Below are positions 3,348-17,094 of a stretch of DNA of 23,626 nucleotides, piece after piece; within the stretch, counting starts at the first letter, position 1; each line of letters starts with the position of its first letter. Origin of the DNA: a virus. A model generated the notes under the pieces. That model made no database searches and was not told the DNA's origin. It was given only the letters and a program-made list of their open reading frames with translations. A program made the position numbers and the translations under genes. The stretch is taken from positions 1-23,626 of IMG/VR virus record IMGVR_UViG_3300025684_000071; one strand, written 5' to 3'.

Positions 3348-4094
3348 TTAAAACTTAAACTTTGGGATATTAGGTTTTGGAATATTAGCCATTGCCCCCA
3401 TTGGTTTTTTTGTAAAACTAGTAGGATTCATTGCTGGATTCTTTCTAGCAGGTGGGGTTTTAATCTCAGTAGGAGGCTTTGCCTTTTGTAGCTTAGGCCT
3501 ATCATTATTTGCTGGATTTGAATCTTTTTGTGGCTTTATACCTGGCATTTCACTATCTCTAGTTACTGCATCTGGTGCTTTTCCATTAGGAGTATCAGGA
3601 TCTGAGCCCGTTGCACTTTCTAACATTTGCTCCATTAACCAGCCCATTGCTTCAGATTTATTAGGATCTTCTACTGGCGCTTCTTTATTTTTTTTATAAG
3701 AAAATTGTTTTCCTGGATCTTCTGGGTGTACAGTCTCAACAGTGTCTGCTACCGGGTTTTTTTGTTGCCCTACTTTTTTAAAGTCTTTATTCTTATCTGT
3801 TATTGCTGACTTAAGATCCAAGCTATCTGCTTGATCTTTAGGGTCGCCAACTTCATTTATCTGATTATTATTTTTAGCAGACTGTTTATTCATATCGCCA
3901 AAATTACTATTTGAATCTTCTAAAGGTTTTTGTGTACCCTTTGATGGTAAATTATCAAATTGTGTAATATTGATCTCAGATTTAGTATTCTTATTAGTCT
4001 GTGCATCTGCTTTAGTACTTAAATTACCTGAATTTTTAGTTGCAGCATTAGTAGAACTATTTATATTACCATATACATTTCCTAAAGTACCCAT
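3348..4094 (-). CDS. Disordered Lys/Asn/Pro-rich protein coupled to the tape measure gene
   Basis: This 248-aa protein has low complexity throughout and is rich in Asn, Lys, Pro, Ser, Thr and Asp. The first 60 residues are almost all polar (NSSTNAATKNSGNLSTKADA). One hydrophobic helix appears near residues 148-162 (SEAMGWLMEQMLESATG), and the C-terminal end is basic and proline-rich (ANIPKPNIPKFKF). It begins on the last base of the tape measure gene stop (TAATG), so the two are translationally coupled and probably made in a fixed ratio. It may be a tail-tip, baseplate-hub or tape-measure-associated protein; the sequence does not say which. The tail PK...PK pattern is shared with the end of the chaperone extension at 7558. 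Confidence 0.7.
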   Translation of the reverse strand: MGTLGNVYGNINSSTNAATKNSGNLSTKADAQTNKNTKSEINITQFDNLPSKGTQKPLEDSNSNFGDMNKQSAKNNNQINEVGDPKDQADSLDLKSAITDKNKDFKKVGQQKNPVADTVETVHPEDPGKQFSYKKNKEAPVEDPNKSEAMGWLMEQMLESATGSDPDTPNGKAPDAVTRDSEMPGIKPQKDSNPANNDRPKLQKAKPPTEIKTPPARKNPAMNPTSFTKKPMGAMANIPKPNIPKFKF

Positions 4095-7000
4095 TATATC
4101 TTCTTAATTTTTATACCATCATCTGATAGTTTAGATTCTAGGTCTCGAATTGCATTAACCACAGGGCCTAGATTTATTGGAGGTGCACTTCTTGGTGCAC
4201 TTGCTGGTGCGCTTGAGCCAAGACCAATGGCATCTAACCCTTTTTCAATAATGTTTTTATTATCTCCCATTCCATCAGAAACTGCATTTCCAAATTCAGC
4301 CATAATATTACCAAGCTCTCCAATTGCATCTACTAAAGCATTCCCTAAGTCTGCAACTGCATTATCCTTTCCAGTAGCACTTAAATAAGCCAGTGCTCTA
4401 AACATTTTAGTACTTGAATCAATTGCTTCAACATTCATATTATTACTACCATCAGAAATCCTTTCAACTGAAGTTGCAATAGATTTTAAAGCCCTAGCTT
4501 GTTTATCAAAGCTAGAATCAGATAATGTTTTAAACATGTGAGTAGCCGCATGTACTTTCTTAATAGGTTGGGTTGCTATTTGAGCAAATGAAGCTGCCAC
4601 CGAAACCAAAGGCTGTGCTAATAAAACTATTTTATCTGCACATTGGTGCATTGCATACATGATTTTAACAAATGGATGCTGCTCTTCTTTCTTCTTAAAT
4701 AATTTATCAAAGAAGCCTTGATTATCACCACCACCTAAAATTGAAGTTATCGCCGGAGCCATAAGTTTAAATGCCATGGCTTGTGGCATATAGGTATCTG
4801 CTGTTAATTGTTTCATGAAATCCAGAACAGGTTTTATTCTAGTTTCATCTACATTTGTCATTCTTACAAACGCATCAGATATTAACTTTAGACCTCTACC
4901 TGCAATATACGCCTGTGTGGCAAATGATGCAAATGATATAGCTAAATGTGCCATGTGCTTAGCAGTAATACCAATCATTTTTCTCATCTTAAATAACGTT
5001 GTTAAAACATGTAGCGGTTTTGTAGTAAATCCAATCATTGCGCTTCTTACACCCATAAAAGCATGTCCAACATTCCTTAGCCCGTTTGCTGCAACTTCAA
5101 TAAGGCTACTTCCGCCATAGCTTGACGACATTGTTATTAATGATTGCAAAAACTTATTAATAGTCTTAACTGCATTTCCGGCTAAAATAATACCTTCTAA
5201 TGCTGATGCTACAGTTCCTAATGGTTTAGCAAGTTGTGCTATTTTATTTCTTTTCTTAATTAAATCATCTAATATATCAAGTGGTCCTTTAGATTTTTCA
5301 CCACCAAAGAAACTTGCAATACCATCAACTAAACCTTTTACCGCACTACCAATTGCTGCAACAACACCACCAGCTGCAATACCTGCAGTTGCTCCTGCTA
5401 ATAAAAGTAATGATAAAGATATTGCTGCAATACCACCGGCCATTGGTAATAAATTACTAACACCCACTTCTTTCTTTAATCTAGCCAAGATATCTACAAT
5501 ACCATTAATTGGTGCTAAGATTAAGTTTGTAATATTCTGTCCAATAGCTCCAAGATCTGGTAGCGCAGAAAATATCCATGCTACTGCAAGAATACCTGCT
5601 GCAATTATAATCATACCAACAACACCTAATACAATACCTACGGCACCAACACCTGATGTTGCAATTAATCCAATTGCTGCAACTGGAATTGCAAAGAAGA
5701 ATATAGCTCCAGCAGCTCCTAAAATCCATGCAAATGAGAATGGAGATTCTTCTGGAATATCATCCGGTAAATAAGCAAATATATGTGCAGTCACCATAAT
5801 ACCAAGTGCTACTGCAATTAATCCAAGTGTTCCCATTCCTATTTCTTTAATACCAACGCTCATAGATTTAAAGAGTATTGTTATTAGTGTAAATGGAAGT
5901 GCAAACATTAATAGAGCTAAACCTGTTTGTAAACTCCATTTCCAATCTGGAGCCTTAGTCTCTTCTGGAAATAGTGTAAATACAAATGCTGCACCTAATA
6001 TTGCAACTGCAACTAATACTGTAGCTATTGTTCCAAACGCGATTTCTTTTAAGGATGCTCCTTTAACTGCTTTCATAACAGTACTAAAACTCCACGCAAA
6101 TGCTACCATAGAAAGACCCACTATAATAGACCATAATAAAGGTGGTGCAGTATACGTATCTGGTAATAATTGGAATATGTAAGATATCCCAACAATAGCT
6201 CCGGCCATTGCTAACATTGCTAATCCGGCGATCATTACTAAACCAACACCTTTCATTCCTGTTACTTTAGCCTCACCTAATGCTTTAATTATCATTCCAA
6301 ATGAAAATGCAAGAGGGATTAATCCAATACCAATTGCAAGCATTCCTATAAATTGCTGCATGGTTATTGGTTGTAATAACTGAAGTGCAATAGATGCTGC
6401 GACTAGGGCTACAACTCCAGTGACCATCGCTAATCCGGCCATCGCTATCATTTTTACACCTTTCATATTTGGTTTTACTTTAGCTTCTTTTAATGCTGCC
6501 ATAATCTTACCCATTGAAAGTGCAAGACCTACCATTGTAAGTGATATAAGTATTGCTGTTAATGCTTGTGGCATACTTAAAGGCATTATAAGTGAAAATA
6601 CCCAAGAAGACACTGTTATAACAAATGACATTCCTAATAAGCTTAATAATCCTGCGCCAGCAAGAGGTGCCAATCCACTTGTATCAGTCCCAGATACTTC
6701 CATGCCTTCAAAGCCTGCGCTTTTTGTGCCAATTGCTTTTGCTAATTGTTTTGTAATTAAGCTAAAAGCATAAGCCATTGGAATAAGAAGTGCTGCGATA
6801 ACTAATGCGGAAATTGCATTTGCAGGTGTAAGTGGCACAATCATGCTAAATATAAATGAGGTAAGTAAAATAGTTACTGCCATACCAACTAGAGCCAATG
6901 TAGCCACACCAACTCCTGCTAATCCAGGGCCGGATGTAGAACTGGCTTTAAATGAACCATCACTTTCCATAGCCAGGGCATCTTCACTACCACTTAATTT

Positions 7001-7435
7001 AGTTGCAATATCTAAGAATGCTGGCACCACTAATGCCAATGCACCCGCTACTGCGATCACTGTTAATAATTGTCCTATAGAAATAATTGGTGTATATTGT
7101 ATTAAGGCCGCGGCCACCGTAATGGCTACCATACTACCAATTGCAATCATAGCCATTTGACCAGCCTTATCCGGAGAAAGACCTTTAAATTTACTTGCAT
7201 CGCCAAATTCTGTAGATGAGCCTCCTGATTTACTAGAATCAATTTGCTCTTTAATAAGAGTTTTAATGTCGGTTAAAAGAACAGTCTGTTTTGCTAACTC
7301 TTCATTAGATAATTTAACTTCATCCCTTAGATCTATAGTAATAACGTTTAAAGCTTTTGCTTCTTCTAATTGCTCCTCTGCAAATTCGGCTAGCTTATTA
7401 GTTGGACCTATTAACTTTGAAAAAATATTCATCAT
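4094..7435 (-). CDS. Probable tail tape measure protein with tandem hydrophobic hairpins
   Basis: At 1113 aa this is the longest protein in the window. Residues 1-70 are a charged, probable coiled coil. Residues about 95-645 are strongly hydrophobic and built of about eight similar units. Each unit is two long hydrophobic helices around a short turn, marked by a repeated turn motif: IFSMIVPL (195), VFSLIMPL (279), ALQLLQP (350), IFQLLPD (420), VFTLFPE (485), IFAYLPD (552), IFSALPD (621). Further hydrophobic and Gly/Ala-rich stretches follow to about 710, and the rest is amphipathic helix. Position straight after a tail-assembly-type gene, and length far above a normal membrane transporter of this style, support tape measure, which sets tail length and is ejected ahead of the DNA. 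T4 gp29 is 590 aa; with the known rule of about 0.15 nm per residue this one predicts a tail near 165 nm. A membrane protein unrelated to the tail is the main alternative. Confidence 0.72.
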   Translation of the reverse strand: MMNIFSKLIGPTNKLAEFAEEQLEEAKALNVITIDLRDEVKLSNEELAKQTVLLTDIKTLIKEQIDSSKSGGSSTEFGDASKFKGLSPDKAGQMAMIAIGSMVAITVAAALIQYTPIISIGQLLTVIAVAGALALVVPAFLDIATKLSGSEDALAMESDGSFKASSTSGPGLAGVGVATLALVGMAVTILLTSFIFSMIVPLTPANAISALVIAALLIPMAYAFSLITKQLAKAIGTKSAGFEGMEVSGTDTSGLAPLAGAGLLSLLGMSFVITVSSWVFSLIMPLSMPQALTAILISLTMVGLALSMGKIMAALKEAKVKPNMKGVKMIAMAGLAMVTGVVALVAASIALQLLQPITMQQFIGMLAIGIGLIPLAFSFGMIIKALGEAKVTGMKGVGLVMIAGLAMLAMAGAIVGISYIFQLLPDTYTAPPLLWSIIVGLSMVAFAWSFSTVMKAVKGASLKEIAFGTIATVLVAVAILGAAFVFTLFPEETKAPDWKWSLQTGLALLMFALPFTLITILFKSMSVGIKEIGMGTLGLIAVALGIMVTAHIFAYLPDDIPEESPFSFAWILGAAGAIFFFAIPVAAIGLIATSGVGAVGIVLGVVGMIIIAAGILAVAWIFSALPDLGAIGQNITNLILAPINGIVDILARLKKEVGVSNLLPMAGGIAAISLSLLLLAGATAGIAAGGVVAAIGSAVKGLVDGIASFFGGEKSKGPLDILDDLIKKRNKIAQLAKPLGTVASALEGIILAGNAVKTINKFLQSLITMSSSYGGSSLIEVAANGLRNVGHAFMGVRSAMIGFTTKPLHVLTTLFKMRKMIGITAKHMAHLAISFASFATQAYIAGRGLKLISDAFVRMTNVDETRIKPVLDFMKQLTADTYMPQAMAFKLMAPAITSILGGGDNQGFFDKLFKKKEEQHPFVKIMYAMHQCADKIVLLAQPLVSVAASFAQIATQPIKKVHAATHMFKTLSDSSFDKQARALKSIATSVERISDGSNNMNVEAIDSSTKMFRALAYLSATGKDNAVADLGNALVDAIGELGNIMAEFGNAVSDGMGDNKNIIEKGLDAIGLGSSAPASAPRSAPPINLGPVVNAIRDLESKLSDDGIKIKKI

Positions 7436-7484: not shown

Positions 7485-7494
7485 TATATATATC
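7485..7494 (-). promoter_or_regulatory. Late-promoter variant upstream of the tape measure gene
   Basis: On minus this reads GATATATATA, one base off GATATATAA, 49 bases upstream of the tape measure ATG. It starts on the base of the hairpin at 7494-7523, so a terminator-like stem and a promoter box abut here. Confidence 0.45.
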
Positions 7495-7523
7495 AAGAGT
7501 CCCACAACAATGCAGGACTCTTG
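7494..7523 (-). terminator. Hairpin before the tape measure gene
   Basis: Perfect 9-bp arms CAAGAGTCC (7494-7502) and GGACTCTTG (7515-7523) with a 12-base loop. It lies between the stop of the chaperone extension (7558) and the tape measure start (7435). No T tract follows on either strand, only TATATA, so termination may be partial or the stem may serve mRNA processing or stability. Confidence 0.4.
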
Positions 7524-7557: not shown

Positions 7558-7779
7558 TTACCCCATTTTCGGTATTGACATTTTCGGCATTTGCATATTC
7601 GGCATTTTCATTTTGCCCATCATATCGCCAGCCATGTCTTTTTCACCTCGGTTCGCTTTTTGTTCGTTCTCTAAGTGTTGTATTAAATCTTTAATGATAT
7701 AATGGTACTCGTAGTATTCCATATTATCAAGTTCACTCGGTTGGATATGTAAGTGTAGATAAATATAAAACTTTGTCTT
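7558..7779 (-). CDS. Frameshifted C-terminal extension of the gp26-like tail assembly protein
   Basis: A 73-residue open stretch lies in the +1 frame at the end of the 328-aa gene and stops at 7558. It reads KTKFYIYLHLHIQPSELDNM, then EYYEYHYIIKDLIQHLENE, then a Met/Pro/Lys-rich tail (MKMPNMQMPKMSIPKMG). The part up to LHLHIQPSELDN looks like genuine protein but has no start codon. The only ATG (7722) comes after it and lacks a good ribosome-binding site, giving 54 aa if used alone. In the lambda-type G/GT system an extension just before the tape measure gene is made by ribosomal frameshifting, and its size and place fit that here. The predicted fusion is 401 aa. Whether a fusion or only the 54-aa form is made needs mass spectrometry. 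Confidence 0.6.
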   Translation of the reverse strand, partial: KTKFYIYLHLHIQPSELDNMEYYEYHYIIKDLIQHLENEQKANRGEKDMAGDMMGKMKMPNMQMPKMSIPKMG

Positions 7780-7792
7780 AAAGAAGTTCTCC
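7777..7792 (-). other. Candidate +1 programmed frameshift site
   Basis: The minus strand reads GGAGAACTTCTTTAAG. A CTT codon sits directly before the TAA stop of the 328-aa gene, the same arrangement as the CTT TGA C site of bacterial release factor 2 (prfB). Slippage of the peptidyl-tRNA from CTT to TTT places AAG next and enters the open 7558 frame. A GGAG about 5 bases upstream of the shift codon could act as the stimulating Shine-Dalgarno-like element; in prfB the spacing is shorter. Confidence 0.5.
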
Positions 7793-8764
7793 AGAGAGAT
7801 CTTGAACAATGAAAAGAGATTTGACGCCGCCACGAAAGTTAATGGGGATCGTCTCCTCCACATCCCCTAGCATAACCTTCATTTCAGGTTGTAAACCAAC
7901 TTTAAGTTGCTCTGCAATTCTGTAGATTAGCATGTATTTTTTAGGATCCCATCCGTTCATTTCTATCTCTAAATCGAATAGTCTCTTTTGGTTAAACGTT
8001 CTCCAGTCAACTGCAATATAAGGTGCAATCTGGACTAGTGACTGATCTATATTTAGACCCTTTTCTCTTCTTTCTTTAATATACTTAGTAATTTCTTGCA
8101 TAGTACCAACTGTTGGTGGCTTCATCATAAACTCACCATGGTTTCTAGTTTTAATTAAAAAACCTTTACGCTCATTATCATAGTACTTATCGATTTCTGA
8201 AGGAATTGAAAAATACTGGAAGTATTCTCTTTTAATTTCTACTTCATGTTTTTTACCATCTGGTGTTTGGTGTTCAACTTTTAAAGTTGCTTCTGGTTCT
8301 GGAAATGTTAAGTCTCTAATTGATAAAATAAGTACAAATCTATCTTCTTCTAAAATATCCTTTACAGACATTCTAGCTGTTTTAGAATTTACAGTTGTAC
8401 AAGATTCTACAATAGCATTTAATTTATCATCAATATCTAATAAATTATTTTCATCCATTGTTGAAAAGTGTCTAATTTCAGCAACTTTTGCCGGTCTAAT
8501 TTTAACAACGATATCATCTGGGTAAAATCTACCTTTAGATGGCAATGTTTCTATATCTAGTTCGTGCCAACCTAGATATACATCTGATTTTTCAGCCTTT
8601 GTAGGGCCAAAATCTCTCATGTTAACTTTACCTAATCCTTGTTCGTCAATTACAGCCTCAACTGATTCAACATCAACGGTGGGTTTACTTGTCTGGTTAA
8701 CGCCTTCGCGAGCATCTAACATTCTTGACAATTCTTCTTCTGAAGGTTTGTTTTGTTCTGACAT
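7778..8764 (-). CDS. gp26-like T4 baseplate/tail-assembly protein
   Basis: This 328-aa protein carries LPSKGRFYP at residues 74-82 and KIRPAKVAEIRHFSTMDE just after it, the pattern I associate with the T4 baseplate hub family around gp26 (Pfam T4_baseplate). The N-terminal 60 residues are acidic and variable, and the remainder is a mixed alpha/beta domain. T4 gp26 is about 208 aa; the greater length comes from the leader and extra C-terminal part. Direct position between the tube and tape measure genes also fits a tail assembly chaperone, the role of G/GT proteins in other phages. It starts one base after the stop of the small RHH-like gene and ends at TAA 7778-7780, where the frameshift site lies. 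Confidence 0.65.
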   Translation of the reverse strand: MSEQNKPSEEELSRMLDAREGVNQTSKPTVDVESVEAVIDEQGLGKVNMRDFGPTKAEKSDVYLGWHELDIETLPSKGRFYPDDIVVKIRPAKVAEIRHFSTMDENNLLDIDDKLNAIVESCTTVNSKTARMSVKDILEEDRFVLILSIRDLTFPEPEATLKVEHQTPDGKKHEVEIKREYFQYFSIPSEIDKYYDNERKGFLIKTRNHGEFMMKPPTVGTMQEITKYIKERREKGLNIDQSLVQIAPYIAVDWRTFNQKRLFDLEIEMNGWDPKKYMLIYRIAEQLKVGLQPEMKVMLGDVEETIPINFRGGVKSLFIVQDLSGELL

Positions 8765-9085: not shown

Positions 9086-9643
9086 TTAGTTTAATTCTTC
9101 AGACCATACATCTGATCTCCAACCAATTTCTAATGAAGCAGCATCTCCACTTTCGTAACTTAGTTCCGAAGTGAATCCGATACCCGATGTAATGAAACAA
9201 TCATCAAGTGTTACCTTTCTGTAAATGTCTCCCTCTCTGTTAAATTGTACGATTACAATTGTACCAACATAATTCTTTTTAAGACCCATTTCGCCAGTCT
9301 CAGGATTGTACTGAGCTCTGTACCATTGTCTTAAAGACTTATATAAGTAAGCTTGGTTTGCATCGTTTAAGTTTAATGAAAAGTTAACAGTTACATCAAC
9401 TGTAGTTTCACCAATCATACCTGCGTATGATCTAGACGCAAATTTGTATTTCTGAGTTATTGCGTCAACTCCTTTGTGTAGACCATCAAGACCACTGATA
9501 GAATTTATGTGTTGTAAAAACAACTCCTGCCCACCTACTCCTGCTGGAGGTAAAATAGTTACCTCAAACAGGTTAGCCTGAACTGGCTCAAAATTTCTGC
9601 CTTTTTTGCTTGTTTGATCCTCTGAATAATGTGGTAAAGCCAT
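9086..9643 (-). CDS. 19: Tail tube protein (gp19-like)
   Basis: The 185-aa protein matches the T4 gp19 family, whose members are near 160-190 aa and stack as hexameric rings to form the tail tube. Features are a polar N-terminus (MALPHYSEDQ), ANLFEVTILPP in the first strand, FLQHINSISGLDG, a central beta block with VDVTVNFSLNLND and WYRAQYNPETG, and an end with ASLEIGWRSDVW. The gene directly follows the sheath, as in T4, 37 bases after its stop, and a GATATATAA box (9665) lies 21 bases before the ATG. It has its own terminator, so the tube can be made in excess of the genes that follow. Confidence 0.88.
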   Translation of the reverse strand: MALPHYSEDQTSKKGRNFEPVQANLFEVTILPPAGVGGQELFLQHINSISGLDGLHKGVDAITQKYKFASRSYAGMIGETTVDVTVNFSLNLNDANQAYLYKSLRQWYRAQYNPETGEMGLKKNYVGTIVIVQFNREGDIYRKVTLDDCFITSGIGFTSELSYESGDAASLEIGWRSDVWSEELN

Positions 9644-9680: not shown

Positions 9681-12551
9681 TTATGCGAAGTTACCGGTAG
9701 CAATTTCACCTGTATTCAAGATTGTTACTCTCGATACTAAGATTTCAAGACCTTTAACTGGCTCAACGTACGTATCTAAAATACCCATGTTGTTGTCAAT
9801 AACTTCGTTAGTGTTGTTAGTACCATCCATAATGTTTCTGTAATCATAAACACCACCATCTTTCTTAACAGATTCCATAAAGTTATCCGCTAAAGTTTTG
9901 ATCTCTAATCTTGTTTGTGCATTATTAAATTCAAATAGGTAGTTCTTTAAGATTTCAGCAAGTCCATCTTCAATATAAATCATTGCCTCTCTTACGTGAG
10001 CAGAAGAAAGCGCTGATTGAATTGATTGTTGTGCAGTCTTATTACCTTTAATTGTTAAACCAACTCCTCTTTCGAATACGATTGGGTTAATACCAAATGG
10101 TTCTAGAATATCTCTATCGTTTTTATCAAATGCAAATTCAAGTGATTGTACGTTAGTACCTCCTACAACACCTCTTCTAGGTCCTGCAATAATTGACCAA
10201 GGTAATGCGTCAGTATACTTATCAATATAGTTGTTAGATACGTAAGCCGCTGGTGGAACTACTTTAACTCTTCCGTTCTCTAGGATATTAAGACCTGGAG
10301 AGTAGTAGAATCCAAAGTTTGCTCCTTCATTAAGGCTTGGTAACGTATATAATAACGTTGGGTTTAAATCTAAATTACCACCATTTGCAATATGTCTTAC
10401 TTCAAAAGCTCCAGTATCAGCATTTAAGAATGATGGATTAGTAGAAGCTTTAAGCTCATGTACCATTGGTCCGTTTAAGATTGCTGATGCGTTTTGTCTT
10501 TCTTTACAAAGTTGTGTAATTGCTTCTTTGTTAAGAATTGTTGGCCCTTCTAATGAACCAAACGTATCAATTACATATCTAAATGTAATAGCATCTTTAT
10601 CAACTAAAGTATTTGATAAACCGTTACCCGGTGTTAATTGTGCTAATAATTCAGATTTTGATCTGTCATTTATAACTGCAGCATTAAGTGGGAACATTGT
10701 ATAAGTTGAAGTTGCATCTTCATATCTCTTAAGAGCGTAAGTTGGCTCAGTAGTTAAGTTTCTATGTGTAATAAATCTATAAGTATATGTTTTAGTACCA
10801 GCGGAAACGTCTTCAGCTACTGCTAATTTTTGAATCTGTAGGATTCTAGATAATTTACCATCCGCAGATCCAGGAACATACATACCCACTTTAATATTTG
10901 AATTAAATGCAGGTTCTGTTGCTGCAATAGCAACTGTTTTAGAGAATAAAGATCTACCAGTTCCTTCAGGTGTAAATGTCCATCCAGCAGTAACTAATTC
11001 TACTCTATCATTCTCGTTAATTGTATATACTGGGAATACAGCAGTAGCTGCTCTTTGGTATACTAAGAATGTTGTTACGCCAGCTTCTGCATATTCGCTA
11101 GAAACAGGACCACTACAGTTTAATAATGTTTGTCCTGCAACTTCAACTGCGTTGACGAATTTTACTTTTTCACCAGTTGATGCACTCTTTAAGAAAGCAC
11201 CAGCTGTTAAGTCGTTAAATGTAACATCTGCTATAGCAGCATCAATAACTAATTTACCATCAGGATTAACTGTAACATTTGCTGCTGCAAATGAAGGCCC
11301 AGTTCCAACTGTAGTAAATGTTTCATATGTTCCATCAATTGCATTGATTCCAAACGCACCACTAACTGTAATCTTAGTGTCTACTCCGTCATCTGCAATA
11401 GCTGTAATTTGAGAATATTCATTATTTGCTCCAGCGATTGTTGATAATAAGAAAGCATCTTCTTCAATACCTGCTGGTATACTACCAGTAAGACCTCTAA
11501 TATATAAATCGTTTCCATCAATTTCTACAATATTACCAAGTGCAACATCATCTACAGAAACACCTTGTTCGATATTATGTGATAATAATTGGTAATCTTG
11601 GTAGATATCAAAACCTTCACCGATAAGATCAATATTAGCTAATGCATCTTCATTAACTGCACAGAATAAACCTGTTCTTCTTGCTTCTAAGTTAATTAAA
11701 GTTTCAATATAAAGTTGTCTTCCTTCATTATCCGCGAATTCTGGGATTAAAGAACCTGTATATTGTGCAATTAAACTTACTTCTCTTAAGTTAGTAAATG
11801 CTCCTAGCTGTGATTTAATTAAACCAGTTGCATCAAAGTACTGTCCGTAAACTGGGTCGTTATTTAATGCAGTTGCATCGAAATTACCTTTATAGACTAA
11901 AACATCTACCATGTAATCAGAAACATATTCTAGTGGTTCAATTCCTTCTGGAATATTTCCTTCACCATACCACTCTCTTGCTGTAACTTCAAAGCCTGCA
12001 ACATTTGCAGCTTGTTTTACAATAATCGTAATAGGATCTTGTTTAATGTTTGTAAATGTAATAGCTTTACTTGAATTTGATTCAGTATTACTAGCTGCTG
12101 ATAACACTTTCGCGTCAGACGGAGTCCAGAACTTATCTGTATCAAATACATCTGCATATTTTGTTGTTAAAAACGTTGCGTCGATTCCTTGCTCTCCACC
12201 ATCAGTGATTAACGATACCATACTTACTTGGTCAGCGTCTACTAGAAGTGTCTCTGGTAAATCTGCTGTAGTTAAGTTAAGTGCTAAGATAGGACCTCTT
12301 GATAGAGTTTCTAATGCTGATCTGTGGAAAAACATTCCATCTTTTTCTAAAGACTTGTCAATACCACCGAAAACTTGTACGAATTGCTCAGTATCTTCAA
12401 TGAATACTGGAGTGTTGTAAGGACCTTTTTTAGATCTACCTACAACTAATCTAATAGTTTCAGCAGGGATATTAACCGTCTGTGATTTGTCAAACTCTAA
12501 GCGATATACGCCTGAGCTCTTGAACTGTTGTAATTGAGGACTTAATGCCAT
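9681..12551 (-). CDS. 18: Tail sheath protein (gp18-like), enlarged
   Basis: At 956 aa this is about 300 residues longer than T4 gp18 (659 aa). The N-terminus (MALSPQLQQFKSSGVYRLEF, then VFIEDTEQFVQVFGG) and the long C-terminal part are the conserved sheath pieces: RRGVVGGTNVQSLEFAFDK, HVREAMIYIEDGLAEIL, and near the end GILDTYVEPVKGLEILVSR. Sheath subunits form the contractile outer cylinder; their C-terminal strands interlock neighbours. The extra length lies in the middle (about residues 340-640), in Thr/Ala/Ile/Val-rich, beta-type sequence, as expected for surface domains that decorate a sheath. A late motif sits 30 bases before the ATG. The large terminase gene ends 56 bases upstream. 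Confidence 0.88.
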   Translation of the reverse strand: MALSPQLQQFKSSGVYRLEFDKSQTVNIPAETIRLVVGRSKKGPYNTPVFIEDTEQFVQVFGGIDKSLEKDGMFFHRSALETLSRGPILALNLTTADLPETLLVDADQVSMVSLITDGGEQGIDATFLTTKYADVFDTDKFWTPSDAKVLSAASNTESNSSKAITFTNIKQDPITIIVKQAANVAGFEVTAREWYGEGNIPEGIEPLEYVSDYMVDVLVYKGNFDATALNNDPVYGQYFDATGLIKSQLGAFTNLREVSLIAQYTGSLIPEFADNEGRQLYIETLINLEARRTGLFCAVNEDALANIDLIGEGFDIYQDYQLLSHNIEQGVSVDDVALGNIVEIDGNDLYIRGLTGSIPAGIEEDAFLLSTIAGANNEYSQITAIADDGVDTKITVSGAFGINAIDGTYETFTTVGTGPSFAAANVTVNPDGKLVIDAAIADVTFNDLTAGAFLKSASTGEKVKFVNAVEVAGQTLLNCSGPVSSEYAEAGVTTFLVYQRAATAVFPVYTINENDRVELVTAGWTFTPEGTGRSLFSKTVAIAATEPAFNSNIKVGMYVPGSADGKLSRILQIQKLAVAEDVSAGTKTYTYRFITHRNLTTEPTYALKRYEDATSTYTMFPLNAAVINDRSKSELLAQLTPGNGLSNTLVDKDAITFRYVIDTFGSLEGPTILNKEAITQLCKERQNASAILNGPMVHELKASTNPSFLNADTGAFEVRHIANGGNLDLNPTLLYTLPSLNEGANFGFYYSPGLNILENGRVKVVPPAAYVSNNYIDKYTDALPWSIIAGPRRGVVGGTNVQSLEFAFDKNDRDILEPFGINPIVFERGVGLTIKGNKTAQQSIQSALSSAHVREAMIYIEDGLAEILKNYLFEFNNAQTRLEIKTLADNFMESVKKDGGVYDYRNIMDGTNNTNEVIDNNMGILDTYVEPVKGLEILVSRVTILNTGEIATGNFA

Positions 12552-15159: not shown

Positions 15160-17094
15160 TTACCTGCTTTGGTCGTATCTTCTTAAATTAATTGAAGGGA
15201 TTGCATTATCAATAATATGTGCAAGTTGACTATCTCTGACAACATATTGTTGTAAAACATTTAGATGTTGGTCTTGGCCTATAGTCTTTTTAAAGAGTCT
15301 AATATTAGTAATATCTAAATTTGCAGGCATTAATTGGTATTTTTTATTTAATACCCAACCATATGCTGAGCCGTATACTTTAGATTTATGATTTATTTTT
15401 TCAATAGTCTTATTCATAGAATTAGTATTCTGCCAGTTACTCATAGGATCTAATCTATATGTAGAAACTGAGAAAGTCTTAAACCCATTATTTAAATTAA
15501 AAACAAATCCATACCATGTTCCATTTTCTAATGCAATATCGTGGTCTATTGTATGTAAATCGCCATTAAGTTTAACAATAGTGGAATTTGCAGAAATACT
15601 AAGCTCTAATCCTTTATTATTATCCCAACCATCAAATATAATCTGGTGTGTATTATCTACAAAACCAGGTCTTATCCATGTAGTAAATGCTAAATTATCT
15701 TTAACACTATGTTGTGATTTTTTATTATAGACTAAAAGCTCTATGTTTGCATTTAAAGATCTAAGATCATAGTAATTTTTAGATACTATAGTCCATTTAT
15801 TTCTAATCTCACCATCTGTTATAATTAAGCCAGTATTAATTCTAAACCTAGTTCCATCTCCAACTTCTGTGAATGTCGTTTGATATTGAGCTGGTTTAGT
15901 AGTCTGTACATATTCGTCTTGGATTTCTTCACCAAAGATCTCTTCAACACCAACTGTTAATGCGTCTAGCTCTTGTTCGATTGTAGTATCTGTAATAATA
16001 TTTGACGTGCGCTCTTCGAACTTTTTCAAATAGAGCTTCCAATATGTCATGTGTTCATTAAACTCATCTGCATACTGAACTGCATTTACTTCGTACATTC
16101 TATTAACTAGAGGGAAATATAAATAGTCTCTCATTCTAGGACTAGGGCCCACACCGAATGCGTTTTTAAACTGCCCTTTAGTTAAATGAACTTCAAAATC
16201 TTCAAATCCCATTCCAAAGATATCATAACTAAATTGTGCAGTTGGCATTTCATTATCTGGAACCATTATCTTAAGTTCTCCTTGTTCAACAACATTATAG
16301 AGAGAATACTCCATAAGAATAACATCCTTGCTTCTCTTATCTGGCTCTACTCTAAAGTATTTTACAGTGTGTCCCCAAATATCTGTTGACAATTCTGTAA
16401 GCTGTTCGTATGTTTTAGTTGGTTGATTTAAATTATAAGGGTCATAAAGATTATCGTCACATTCTACTATAATATTTGCACAACCATTCATTGCAATTGA
16501 ATCTGTACAATCTCCACAGAAATCAGGACAAACAACTATTGTGCCGGCTTCAGTTTCAAGTGTAAATGAATTTGAAATCAAACTTATTTCATTTGCATCA
16601 CCTAATGCAGTGACGCTTAATTTTAATCTAATCCAAAGTGGTTTACTGGGATCAAATTCAAGTGCTAATAAACTTGGGCCTAATGGTAAAAATTCACTCA
16701 TCTGTCCACCAGAACTAGACTCTGGTTCTTGAGACCAACTATATTCATAGCTAAATTGATTATTACTATCTGGCAATAAATAAAATGTAAGCCCGGTTGC
16801 TGTAAAAATAGGAGCCTCAGTTAATGTAAATGTATTAGCATCTAGTATTTCATCTACTTGATATTTAATATTACCTACAATAAACTCTTGTCCAGCAATT
16901 AATGGCAATGGTGTACTTCCAGTATAGGTTACTTCTGTTATTGCATCAATAAAATTAAGTTTACCATGGGTAAGTGGTGTGGTTACACCAACTATAATAT
17001 CCCATCCAAGTATTTTTTTAACACCAGAATATGGCTCTATCATTGTACTGTAGAATATATCTCCTATTTGATCTGCTGTGTAATTAGTTACCAT
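15160..17094 (-). CDS. Virion protein with a Cys cluster and a LamG/concanavalin-like C-terminal domain
   Basis: This 644-aa protein lies upstream of the terminase genes, where T4 has neck and tail-completion genes. The N-terminal half is beta-rich. Around residues 190-215 there is a Cys cluster (CPDFCGDCTDSIAMNGC, then another Cys), which suggests disulphide bridges or a metal site. The middle (residues about 280-370) contains PSPRMRDYLYFPLVNRMYEV, typical of a structural beta domain. The last part (about 460-615) has WIRPGF, NNKGLELSIS, NGTWYGFVFNLNN and DITNIRLFKK, the strand pattern of a LamG/concanavalin-type jelly roll that often binds glycans. It may be a neck fibre, whisker-type or tail-completion protein. 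The preceding gene ends inside its promoter. Confidence 0.6.
   Translation of the reverse strand: MVTNYTADQIGDIFYSTMIEPYSGVKKILGWDIIVGVTTPLTHGKLNFIDAITEVTYTGSTPLPLIAGQEFIVGNIKYQVDEILDANTFTLTEAPIFTATGLTFYLLPDSNNQFSYEYSWSQEPESSSGGQMSEFLPLGPSLLALEFDPSKPLWIRLKLSVTALGDANEISLISNSFTLETEAGTIVVCPDFCGDCTDSIAMNGCANIIVECDDNLYDPYNLNQPTKTYEQLTELSTDIWGHTVKYFRVEPDKRSKDVILMEYSLYNVVEQGELKIMVPDNEMPTAQFSYDIFGMGFEDFEVHLTKGQFKNAFGVGPSPRMRDYLYFPLVNRMYEVNAVQYADEFNEHMTYWKLYLKKFEERTSNIITDTTIEQELDALTVGVEEIFGEEIQDEYVQTTKPAQYQTTFTEVGDGTRFRINTGLIITDGEIRNKWTIVSKNYYDLRSLNANIELLVYNKKSQHSVKDNLAFTTWIRPGFVDNTHQIIFDGWDNNKGLELSISANSTIVKLNGDLHTIDHDIALENGTWYGFVFNLNNGFKTFSVSTYRLDPMSNWQNTNSMNKTIEKINHKSKVYGSAYGWVLNKKYQLMPANLDITNIRLFKKTIGQDQHLNVLQQYVVRDSQLAHIIDNAIPSINLRRYDQSR

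What the first reader, a model, noticed from the sequence alone, without database searches (positions are those of the whole stretch)
7558..7863. RF2-like +1 frameshift linking a gp26-like protein to a 73-aa extension before the tape measure gene
Seen: the 328-aa gene ends CTT CTT TAA G. The +1 frame is open from upstream of the stop to 7558 and encodes a sensible protein (FYIYLHLHIQPSELDN...) with no start codon in its first part. A GGAG precedes the shift codon. Known: CTT before a stop codon with an upstream Shine-Dalgarno drives +1 frameshifting in prfB, and lambda-type phages use a (usually -1) frameshift in the same gene position to make tail assembly chaperones. Inference: this phage makes 328-aa and 401-aa forms by a +1 shift. 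An earlier shift at ATC CCC A is also possible.
Basis: partly seen in the sequence, partly recalled or inferred. Interest (0 to 1): 0.8.

Follow-up and report, generated by a model that had tools for sequence, protein, structure and literature searches.

The report
Tail-chaperone +1 ribosomal frameshift in phages

Summary
The 328-aa gene (8764-7778, minus strand) and the overlapping +1 frame are real. They are the T4-type tail assembly chaperone (TAC) pair: the gp26-like short form, with a gp51-like C-terminal part in the +1 frame. All 126 non-redundant relatives examined keep this layout. A +1 shift making 328- and 401-aa products is well supported by comparison; no protein was measured. The site is UUU_C at 7837-7834 (AAC_UUU_CGU): 99 of 126 relatives keep TTT_C. 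TTT followed by CCC/CGC/CGT occurs in 90/126 here but in 0 of 39,314 codon pairs elsewhere in these genes. UUU_Y is a documented +1-prone tetranucleotide, the core of influenza PA-X UCC_UUU_CGU. A GGAGG lies exactly 17 nt upstream in 85/126, although none of 21 gene starts in the window has a Shine-Dalgarno motif. The extension is 91 aa, not 73. TAC frameshifting is a known kind; +1 at UUU_C with GGAGG in a gp26/gp51 pair is a new variant. One 25-member clade and two isolates lack both elements but keep the overlap.

The parts
7778..8764 (-). gp26-like short tail assembly chaperone (TAC-N), 328 aa, zero frame; stop TAA at 7780-7778
   Evidence: phrog_36717 E 1e-26; 6 of 18 aligned relatives hit PF12322 T4_baseplate, best 3.4e-8; AlphaFold model matches baseplate hub / T4-like hub assembly proteins in BFVD
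7855..7859 (-). GGAGG Shine-Dalgarno-like element, 17 nt upstream of the UUU codon
   Evidence: 85/126 nr relatives have GGAGG at exactly 17 nt; third base G of the preceding codon 112/119 vs 23 expected although the amino acid varies
7834..7837 (-). shift site UUU_C (Phe310 codon TTT 7837-7835 plus C 7834; context AAC_UUU_CGU); P-site UUU re-pairs to UUC in +1
   Evidence: UUU_Ynn and UCC_UUU_CGU as +1 sites from PMC5009743
7558..7833 (-). +1-frame gp51-like extension, 91 codons from GTG 7833 to stop 7560-7558; joins residues 1-310 to give 401 aa
   Evidence: phrog_634 E 2e-4; after-stop +1 pN/pS 0.08; aligned across relatives
7778..7833 (-). dual-coding overlap (zero frame RGGVKSLFIVQDLSGELL*, +1 frame VAASNLFSLFKISLENFFK)
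   Evidence: zero-frame pS falls 0.474 -> 0.246 -> 0.088 -> 0.047 towards the stop; +1 pN/pS 0.27 in the last part
4094..7435 (-). putative tape measure protein, 1113 aa, directly downstream
   Evidence: position, hydrophobic composition, weak phrog_23574 tape measure hit E 0.047; inference
9086..9643 (-). tail tube (context)
   Evidence: phrog_45 tail tube E 1.6e-7
9681..12551 (-). tail sheath (context)
   Evidence: PF17482 E 4e-9, phrog_34521 E 1.8e-119

Best explanation
This is the tail assembly chaperone locus of a T4-related contractile-tailed phage, probably of Bacteroidota. Most ribosomes read the gp26-like gene to the TAA and make the 328-aa short form. A minority, with tRNA-Phe on UUU (Phe310) in the P site and a rarely used codon (CGU here; CGC or CCC in most relatives) waiting in the A site, slip forward one base so that tRNA-Phe re-pairs on UUC. 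They continue in the +1 frame for 91 codons and make a 401-aa long form carrying the gp51-like tail. Both forms then act like the lambda G and GT proteins on the tape measure protein and tail tube. Shown by comparison: both frames are under protein-level selection, the frame switch lies at or next to UUU_C, and UUU_C and the upstream GGAGG are conserved beyond what the proteins require. Inferred: that the shift happens in cells, its direction (+1 rather than -2), that GGAGG stimulates it by pairing with the 16S anti-Shine-Dalgarno, and the assembly role.
For: (1) +1 frame kept open and gp51-like in 126 nr relatives (extension 36-119 codons, the one short case being a Lak phage that reads TAG as sense). 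(2) Position: nearest upstream +1 stop is 5 nt before UUU in 6 relatives, and synonymous constraint becomes strong and continuous from the UUU codon on (z -4.4 at F, -4.7 at the next codon). (3) TTT_C in 99/126 nr and 30/38 clusters at 80% protein identity. The next residue is Pro, Arg or Gln but the codon always starts with C: Arg is 100% CGN at the site versus 74-92% AGA elsewhere, and Pro is CCC in 59/59 of two clades versus 1% elsewhere. TTT+CCC/CGC/CGT: 90/126 at the site, 0/39,314 pairs elsewhere. (4) GGAGG at a fixed distance, absent together with TTT_C (27 clusters have both, 8 neither, 3 TTT_C only, 0 GGAGG only). (5) UUU_Ynn is +1-prone in bacteria and UCC_UUU_CGU is the influenza PA-X site (PMC5009743). 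(6) -2 is disfavoured: tRNA-Phe could re-pair at -2 only if the two bases before UUU were UU, which they are not in the listed relatives.
Against: No protein or ribosome-profiling data. One clade (25 nr; UUC_CCA, GGAGA) and two isolates (MA9V-1 CTG_GAA; PTm1) keep the +1 overlap without either element, so the signal is not universal. A spacing of 17 nt fits neither prfB (3 nt) nor the usual range for -1 stimulators. No conserved RNA structure just downstream was found. In CCC lineages the slip could be on CCC instead of UUU; the peptide would be identical.
Confidence: 0.85

Rival explanations
1. RF2-like shift at CTT_TAA: the ribosome pauses at TAA with tRNA-Leu on CTT and slips to UUU.
For: CTT_TAA is present in the window and in all 80 nearest relatives, with GGAG in most of them.
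Against: CTT_TAA only in 65/126 nr; the +1 frame is selected upstream of the stop, and zero-frame amino-acid changes there are silent in +1; phase of variability and synonymous constraint switch about 40-57 nt earlier; local GGAG varies to CAAG/GAAG; the codon before the TAA is GAA or TTA in whole clades.
Confidence: 0.04
2. No shift: the gp51-like protein is translated separately from a start codon inside the gp26-like gene (ATG 7863, GTG 7833, or ATG 7722).
For: The window has an ATG at 7863 and a GTG at 7833 in the +1 frame; T4 has 26 and 51 as separate genes.
Against: 14/126 relatives, in several lineages, have no ATG/GTG/TTG in the allowed interval and 100/126 have no ATG; L015, L081 and L245 have a +1 stop just upstream of UUU; Met at 7722 is Leu or Trp in many; it does not explain selection for TTT_CCC/TTT_CGY.
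Confidence: 0.06
3. Frameshift at nearly the same place but by another route: -2 slip, slip on CCC, or slip at the downstream CTT_TTC (7816-7811).
For: CCC_N is also +1-prone, e.g. Listeria phages (PMC5009743); -2 is known in phage Mu; TTC is nearly invariant at that position.
Against: -2 has no re-pairing at this site; CGY/CAA lineages have no CCC; CTT before TTC varies to TTA, CTA, CTG, ATT, CTC_TTT.
Confidence: 0.06
4. About the upstream element only: GGAGG is not a ribosome contact but a binding site for a protein, part of an upstream RNA structure, or a reflection of zero-frame protein constraint.
For: 17-nt spacing is unusual; the freshwater clade shows some upstream folding (mean z -2.1 for -45..0).
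Against: Exact anti-Shine-Dalgarno complement; third-base G across eight different amino acids; the other clades show no upstream fold.
Confidence: 0.35

Closest known systems
Lambda G/GT-type tail assembly chaperone frameshift (lambda, P2, HK97, many tailed phages)
   Same: Short and long chaperone from one gene by low-level frameshift near its 3' end, just upstream of the tape measure gene; long form carries an extra C-terminal domain (PMC5009743).
   Different: Lambda type is -1 on a slippery heptamer; Mu is -2; HSTV-2 very likely +1. Here +1 at UUU_C, with a GGAGG element, in the T4 gp26/gp51 protein family.
T4 genes 26 and 51 (hub assembly chaperones; Vladimirov, Gautam & Davidson 2022, known here only by title and citations)
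   Same: gp26-like short form; T4 gp51 is PF12322 (residues 1-201) plus a C-terminal part matching phrog_634, i.e. the same kind of long form.
   Different: T4 encodes the two forms as separate, divergently oriented genes; the 2022 paper's title argues for a mechanism other than frameshifting in T4-like phages. Cyanophage S-CAM4 has the gp51 part in the -1 frame at U UUU UUC.
Influenza A PA-X +1 site UCC_UUU_CGU / bacterial UUU_Ynn sites (YopN-TyeA)
   Same: P-site UUU, A-site C-starting codon, +1; the window has AAC_UUU_CGU, some relatives UCC_UUU_CCC.
   Different: PA-X is eukaryotic and no stimulator is evident there; here an upstream GGAGG co-occurs.
prfB (RF2) +1 frameshift, including Flavobacterium johnsoniae AGGAGGUAUCUU_UGA_C
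   Same: +1, pyrimidine-rich P-site codon, GGAGG-type internal element, also present in hosts that rarely use Shine-Dalgarno for initiation (PMC8710568).
   Different: No stop codon in the A site, spacing 17 nt instead of 3, P-site UUU not CUU.

Membership tests
T4-type tail assembly chaperone pair (gp26/gp51) | Zero-frame protein belongs to PF12322 / baseplate hub family | tested here: met
   Window protein itself has no Pfam hit, but 6/18 aligned homologues hit PF12322 (best 3.4e-8); profile-profile with T4/S-CAM4 E 3.8e-5, prob 71; Foldseek BFVD matches to 'baseplate hub subunit' and 'T4-like hub assembly'
T4-type tail assembly chaperone pair (gp26/gp51) | Extension homologous to gp51 C-terminus | tested here: met
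   phrog_634 matched by the +1 extension (8e-6 to 5.5e-3), by S-CAM4 -1 segment (3.8e-28) and T4 gp51 residues 147-246 (1.2e-23); direct hhalign to T4 gp51 alone gave nothing
T4-type tail assembly chaperone pair (gp26/gp51) | Required for tail assembly, absent from virion | not testable with these tools
   needs genetics and virion proteomics
Lambda G/GT-type programmed frameshift | Conserved overlapping frame with a shared shift site upstream of the tape measure gene | tested here: met
   126 nr relatives; dual coding; UUU_C in 99/126; tape measure identity of the downstream gene is itself only weakly supported
Lambda G/GT-type programmed frameshift | Two protein products in a fixed ratio | not testable with these tools
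   needs mass spectrometry or reporters
prfB-type +1 frameshift | CTT followed by an in-frame stop with SD-like element 3 nt upstream | tested here: not met
   CTT_TAA not conserved; frame switch 57 nt upstream; GGAGG is 17 nt from UUU
UUU_Y +1 sites | In-frame UUU followed by pyrimidine at the frame switch | tested here: met
   TTT_C in 99/126 nr; 0/39,314 TTT+CCC/CGC/CGT elsewhere
UUU_Y +1 sites | Measured +1 efficiency above background | not testable with these tools
   reporter needed

The most novel reading that the evidence does not exclude
In phages of Bacteroidota, whose ribosomes largely ignore Shine-Dalgarno sequences for initiation, a GGAGG at a fixed 17-nt distance pairs with the anti-Shine-Dalgarno solely to drive a +1 shift at UUU_C, a geometry that none of the papers read here describes. 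Consistent with this, the only Weeksellaceae (Chryseobacterium) phage lineage examined, whose host family is reported to have an altered anti-Shine-Dalgarno (UCUCA), lacks GGAGG and has CGAGA in its place (n = 1).
Probability: 0.4. Interest if true: 0.75.

Novelty: new variant of a known kind. Interest (0 to 1): 0.6.

Why it matters
[quoted passage not shown] That supports filing gp26/gp51 with the lambda G/GT system. It also supplies about a hundred natural variants of a bacterial UUU_C +1 site with an upstream GGAGG, which makes the role of rare A-site codons and of the anti-Shine-Dalgarno in elongation testable in Bacteroidota. Practically, gp51-like extensions are mis-started in deposited genomes such as PAU and PTm1.

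Tried and rejected
CTT_TAA and CTT_TTC as shift sites (not conserved). ATC_CCC_A at 7850 (CCC there is CCT/CCA/CCG/GAT in relatives). -2 slip (no re-pairing). Downstream stem-loop or pseudoknot: no consistent folding within 90 nt downstream (clade mean z -1.0 to 1.1); one clade (L188-L242) has a low-energy region at +60..+140 (mean z about -3), not general, not pursued. Separate initiation (no conserved start). Direct hhalign of the extension against T4 gp51: no match, family link rests on phrog_634. PDB Foldseek of the short form: nothing significant. Pseudomonas PA5oct tblastn hits to the extension lie on the strand opposite the annotated genes with no long open frame: chance. An alignment of all 18 distant gp26 proteins was too diverse to scan with. 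Scans with MA9V-1 and PTm1 proteins found no further relatives. Window tRNAs: none. The 2022 Virology paper on T4-like TACs could not be read.

Full report
WHAT IS THERE. On the minus strand a 328-aa gene runs 8764-7778 and ends GAA CTT CTT TAA G; the +1 frame is open from 7863 to a stop at 7558. Neighbours on the same strand are a tail tube (9643-9086, phrog_45), a large tail sheath (12551-9681, PF17482) and a 1113-aa hydrophobic protein (7435-4094) in tape-measure position. The window is a virus record of 23,626 bases. Relatives infect mainly Bacteroidota: Prevotella Lak, Tenacibaculum, Chryseobacterium and Flavobacterium phages, plus PAU recorded on Sphingomonas, and one relative lies in a Flavobacteriaceae bin. 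None of 21 gene starts in the window has a Shine-Dalgarno motif in the 18 nt upstream, as expected for such hosts.

WHAT THE PROTEINS ARE. The short form belongs to the T4 gp26 family: six of 18 aligned homologues hit PF12322 T4_baseplate (best 3.4e-8), profile comparison with T4 and S-CAM4 proteins gives E 3.8e-5 at probability 71, and an AlphaFold model (pLDDT 78) matches predicted baseplate hub and T4-like hub assembly proteins. The +1 product hits phrog_634 'baseplate hub assembly catalyst', which T4 gp51 residues 147-246 and an unannotated -1-frame segment of cyanophage S-CAM4 also hit. T4 gp51 is itself PF12322 plus such a tail. So the pair is short form plus long form of the tail assembly chaperone of T4-type phages.

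IS THE +1 FRAME REAL. Scans of viral contigs plus phage records gave 253 usable loci, 126 after removing near-duplicates. Every one keeps a +1 frame open across the end of the gp26-like gene. After the zero-frame stop pN/pS is 0.08 in +1 and at least 1.8 in the other frames. No fused single ORF was seen, so sequencing error is excluded. No start codon is conserved: 100/126 have no ATG and 14/126 no ATG, GTG or TTG between the last +1 stop and the FSL motif.

WHERE THE FRAME CHANGES. In 35 near relatives the position of highest variability moves from zero-frame third bases to +1-frame third bases about 40-48 nt before the TAA. Upstream of the TAA, zero-frame changes such as Asp-Leu/Phe/Ile and Ser/Thr/Ala are silent in the +1 frame (Ile-Ser-Leu), so the +1 frame is read before the stop. 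CTT_TAA is therefore not the site; it occurs in only 65/126 relatives. Zero-frame synonymous divergence falls from 0.474 upstream to 0.246, 0.088 and 0.047 towards the stop. Tested on 59 independent pairs, strong and continuous synonymous constraint begins at one Phe codon (z -4.4) and its follower (-4.7). The closest upstream +1 stop codon starts 5 nt before that codon.

THE SITE. That codon is TTT at 7837-7835, Phe310, followed by C. Among 126 relatives: TTT_CCC 65, TTT_CGC 20, TTT_CGT 5, TTT_CAA 3, TTT_CCT 3, TTT_CCA 2, TTT_CGA 1, TTC_CCA 25 (one clade), others 2. Wherever TTT or TTC is present the next residue changes between Pro, Arg and Gln but its codon always begins with C. Elsewhere in the genes Arg is 74-92% AGA and Pro 1-2% CCC. 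TTT followed by CCC, CGC or CGT never occurs in the other 39,314 codon pairs. This is what a +1 slip of tRNA-Phe from UUU to UUC with a slow A-site codon needs. A review lists UUU_Ynn as especially +1-prone in bacteria and UCC_UUU_CGU as the influenza A PA-X site (PMC5009743); the window reads AAC_UUU_CGU. The product is 310 + 91 = 401 aa.

THE GGAGG. A GGAGG lies exactly 17 nt upstream of TTT in 85/126 relatives (window 7859-7855) and 14 nt upstream in six; elsewhere in these genes GGAGG occurs at 0.19 per kb. The codon before GAG ends in G in 112/119 cases where 23 are expected, across Glu, Ala, Gly, Ser, Thr, Gln, Val and Arg, so the base and not the residue is kept. At 80% protein clustering, 27 clusters have both elements, 8 neither, 3 only TTT_C and none only GGAGG; the losses represent few independent events. 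The pattern GGAGG-N17-TTTC occurs once in the window, 0.09 expected. Flavobacterium johnsoniae keeps a perfect AGGAGG in prfB although it rarely uses such sequences to start translation, and Weeksellaceae with an altered anti-Shine-Dalgarno lack the prfB shift (PMC8710568). The Chryseobacterium phage here has CGAGA instead of GGAGG, one lineage only. How a 17-nt spacing would act is unknown.

WHAT IS NOT SETTLED. The shift is inferred from selection, not observed. The TTC_CCA clade, MA9V-1 and PTm1 keep the overlap but neither element. In CCC lineages the slip may be on CCC, with the same peptide. No general downstream RNA structure was found.

KNOWN OR NEW. Chaperone frameshifting is known as -1, -2 and probably +1 (PMC5009743). 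T4-like chaperone genes were identified in 2022 (Vladimirov et al., cited in PMC10885494 and PMC12846349; the paper itself was not available), with short and long forms as separate genes in some T4-like phages and poly-T -1 signals mentioned for others. None of the searches of the held papers turned up a +1 UUU_C site with an upstream GGAGG in this gene; papers outside that library were not seen. New variant of a known kind.

Noticed in passing
L093 (KU686202.1 3145-8312), about 2465-2677: Cyanophage S-CAM4 gp26 gene ends AAT TTT TTC GGA TAG and the gp51-like segment (phrog_634 E 3.8e-28) is unannotated in the -1 frame: a probable -1 site at U UUU UUC.
   Followed up: partly
L086 (PAU gp93/gp94), L091 (PTm1 ORF-022/023), L090 (pT24): Deposited annotations treat the gp51-like ORF as a separate gene, in PAU and PTm1 with a start too far downstream; the conserved coding region begins inside the gp26-like gene.
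   Followed up: partly
L032-L080, L255-L259: A marine clade keeps the +1 overlap but has UUC_CCA and GGAGA instead of UUU_C and GGAGG, with extreme synonymous conservation of GCC CCT CTT GAN TTC CCA GGT GGC ATC AAA AGT CTT TTC: its shift site is unclear.
   Followed up: no
L084, L085 (Prevotella Lak phages): The +1 frame continues past the gp26-like gene (in L084 only if TAG is read as sense, consistent with the alternative code of Lak phages); the gp51-like motif lies farther downstream.
   Followed up: no
window 7490-7520: Inverted repeat AAGAGTCC...GGACTCTT just after the +1 stop, terminator-like hairpin between the chaperone and tape measure genes.
   Followed up: no
window 15160-17094: 644-aa head-closure/neck-like protein (PF11649, phrog_679) with a weak lectin-like Laminin_G_3 match (E 0.0036) in its C-terminal half.
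   Followed up: no
L188-L242, +60..+140 from the shift codon: Region predicted to fold more stably than shuffled sequence (mean z about -3) in this clade only.
   Followed up: no
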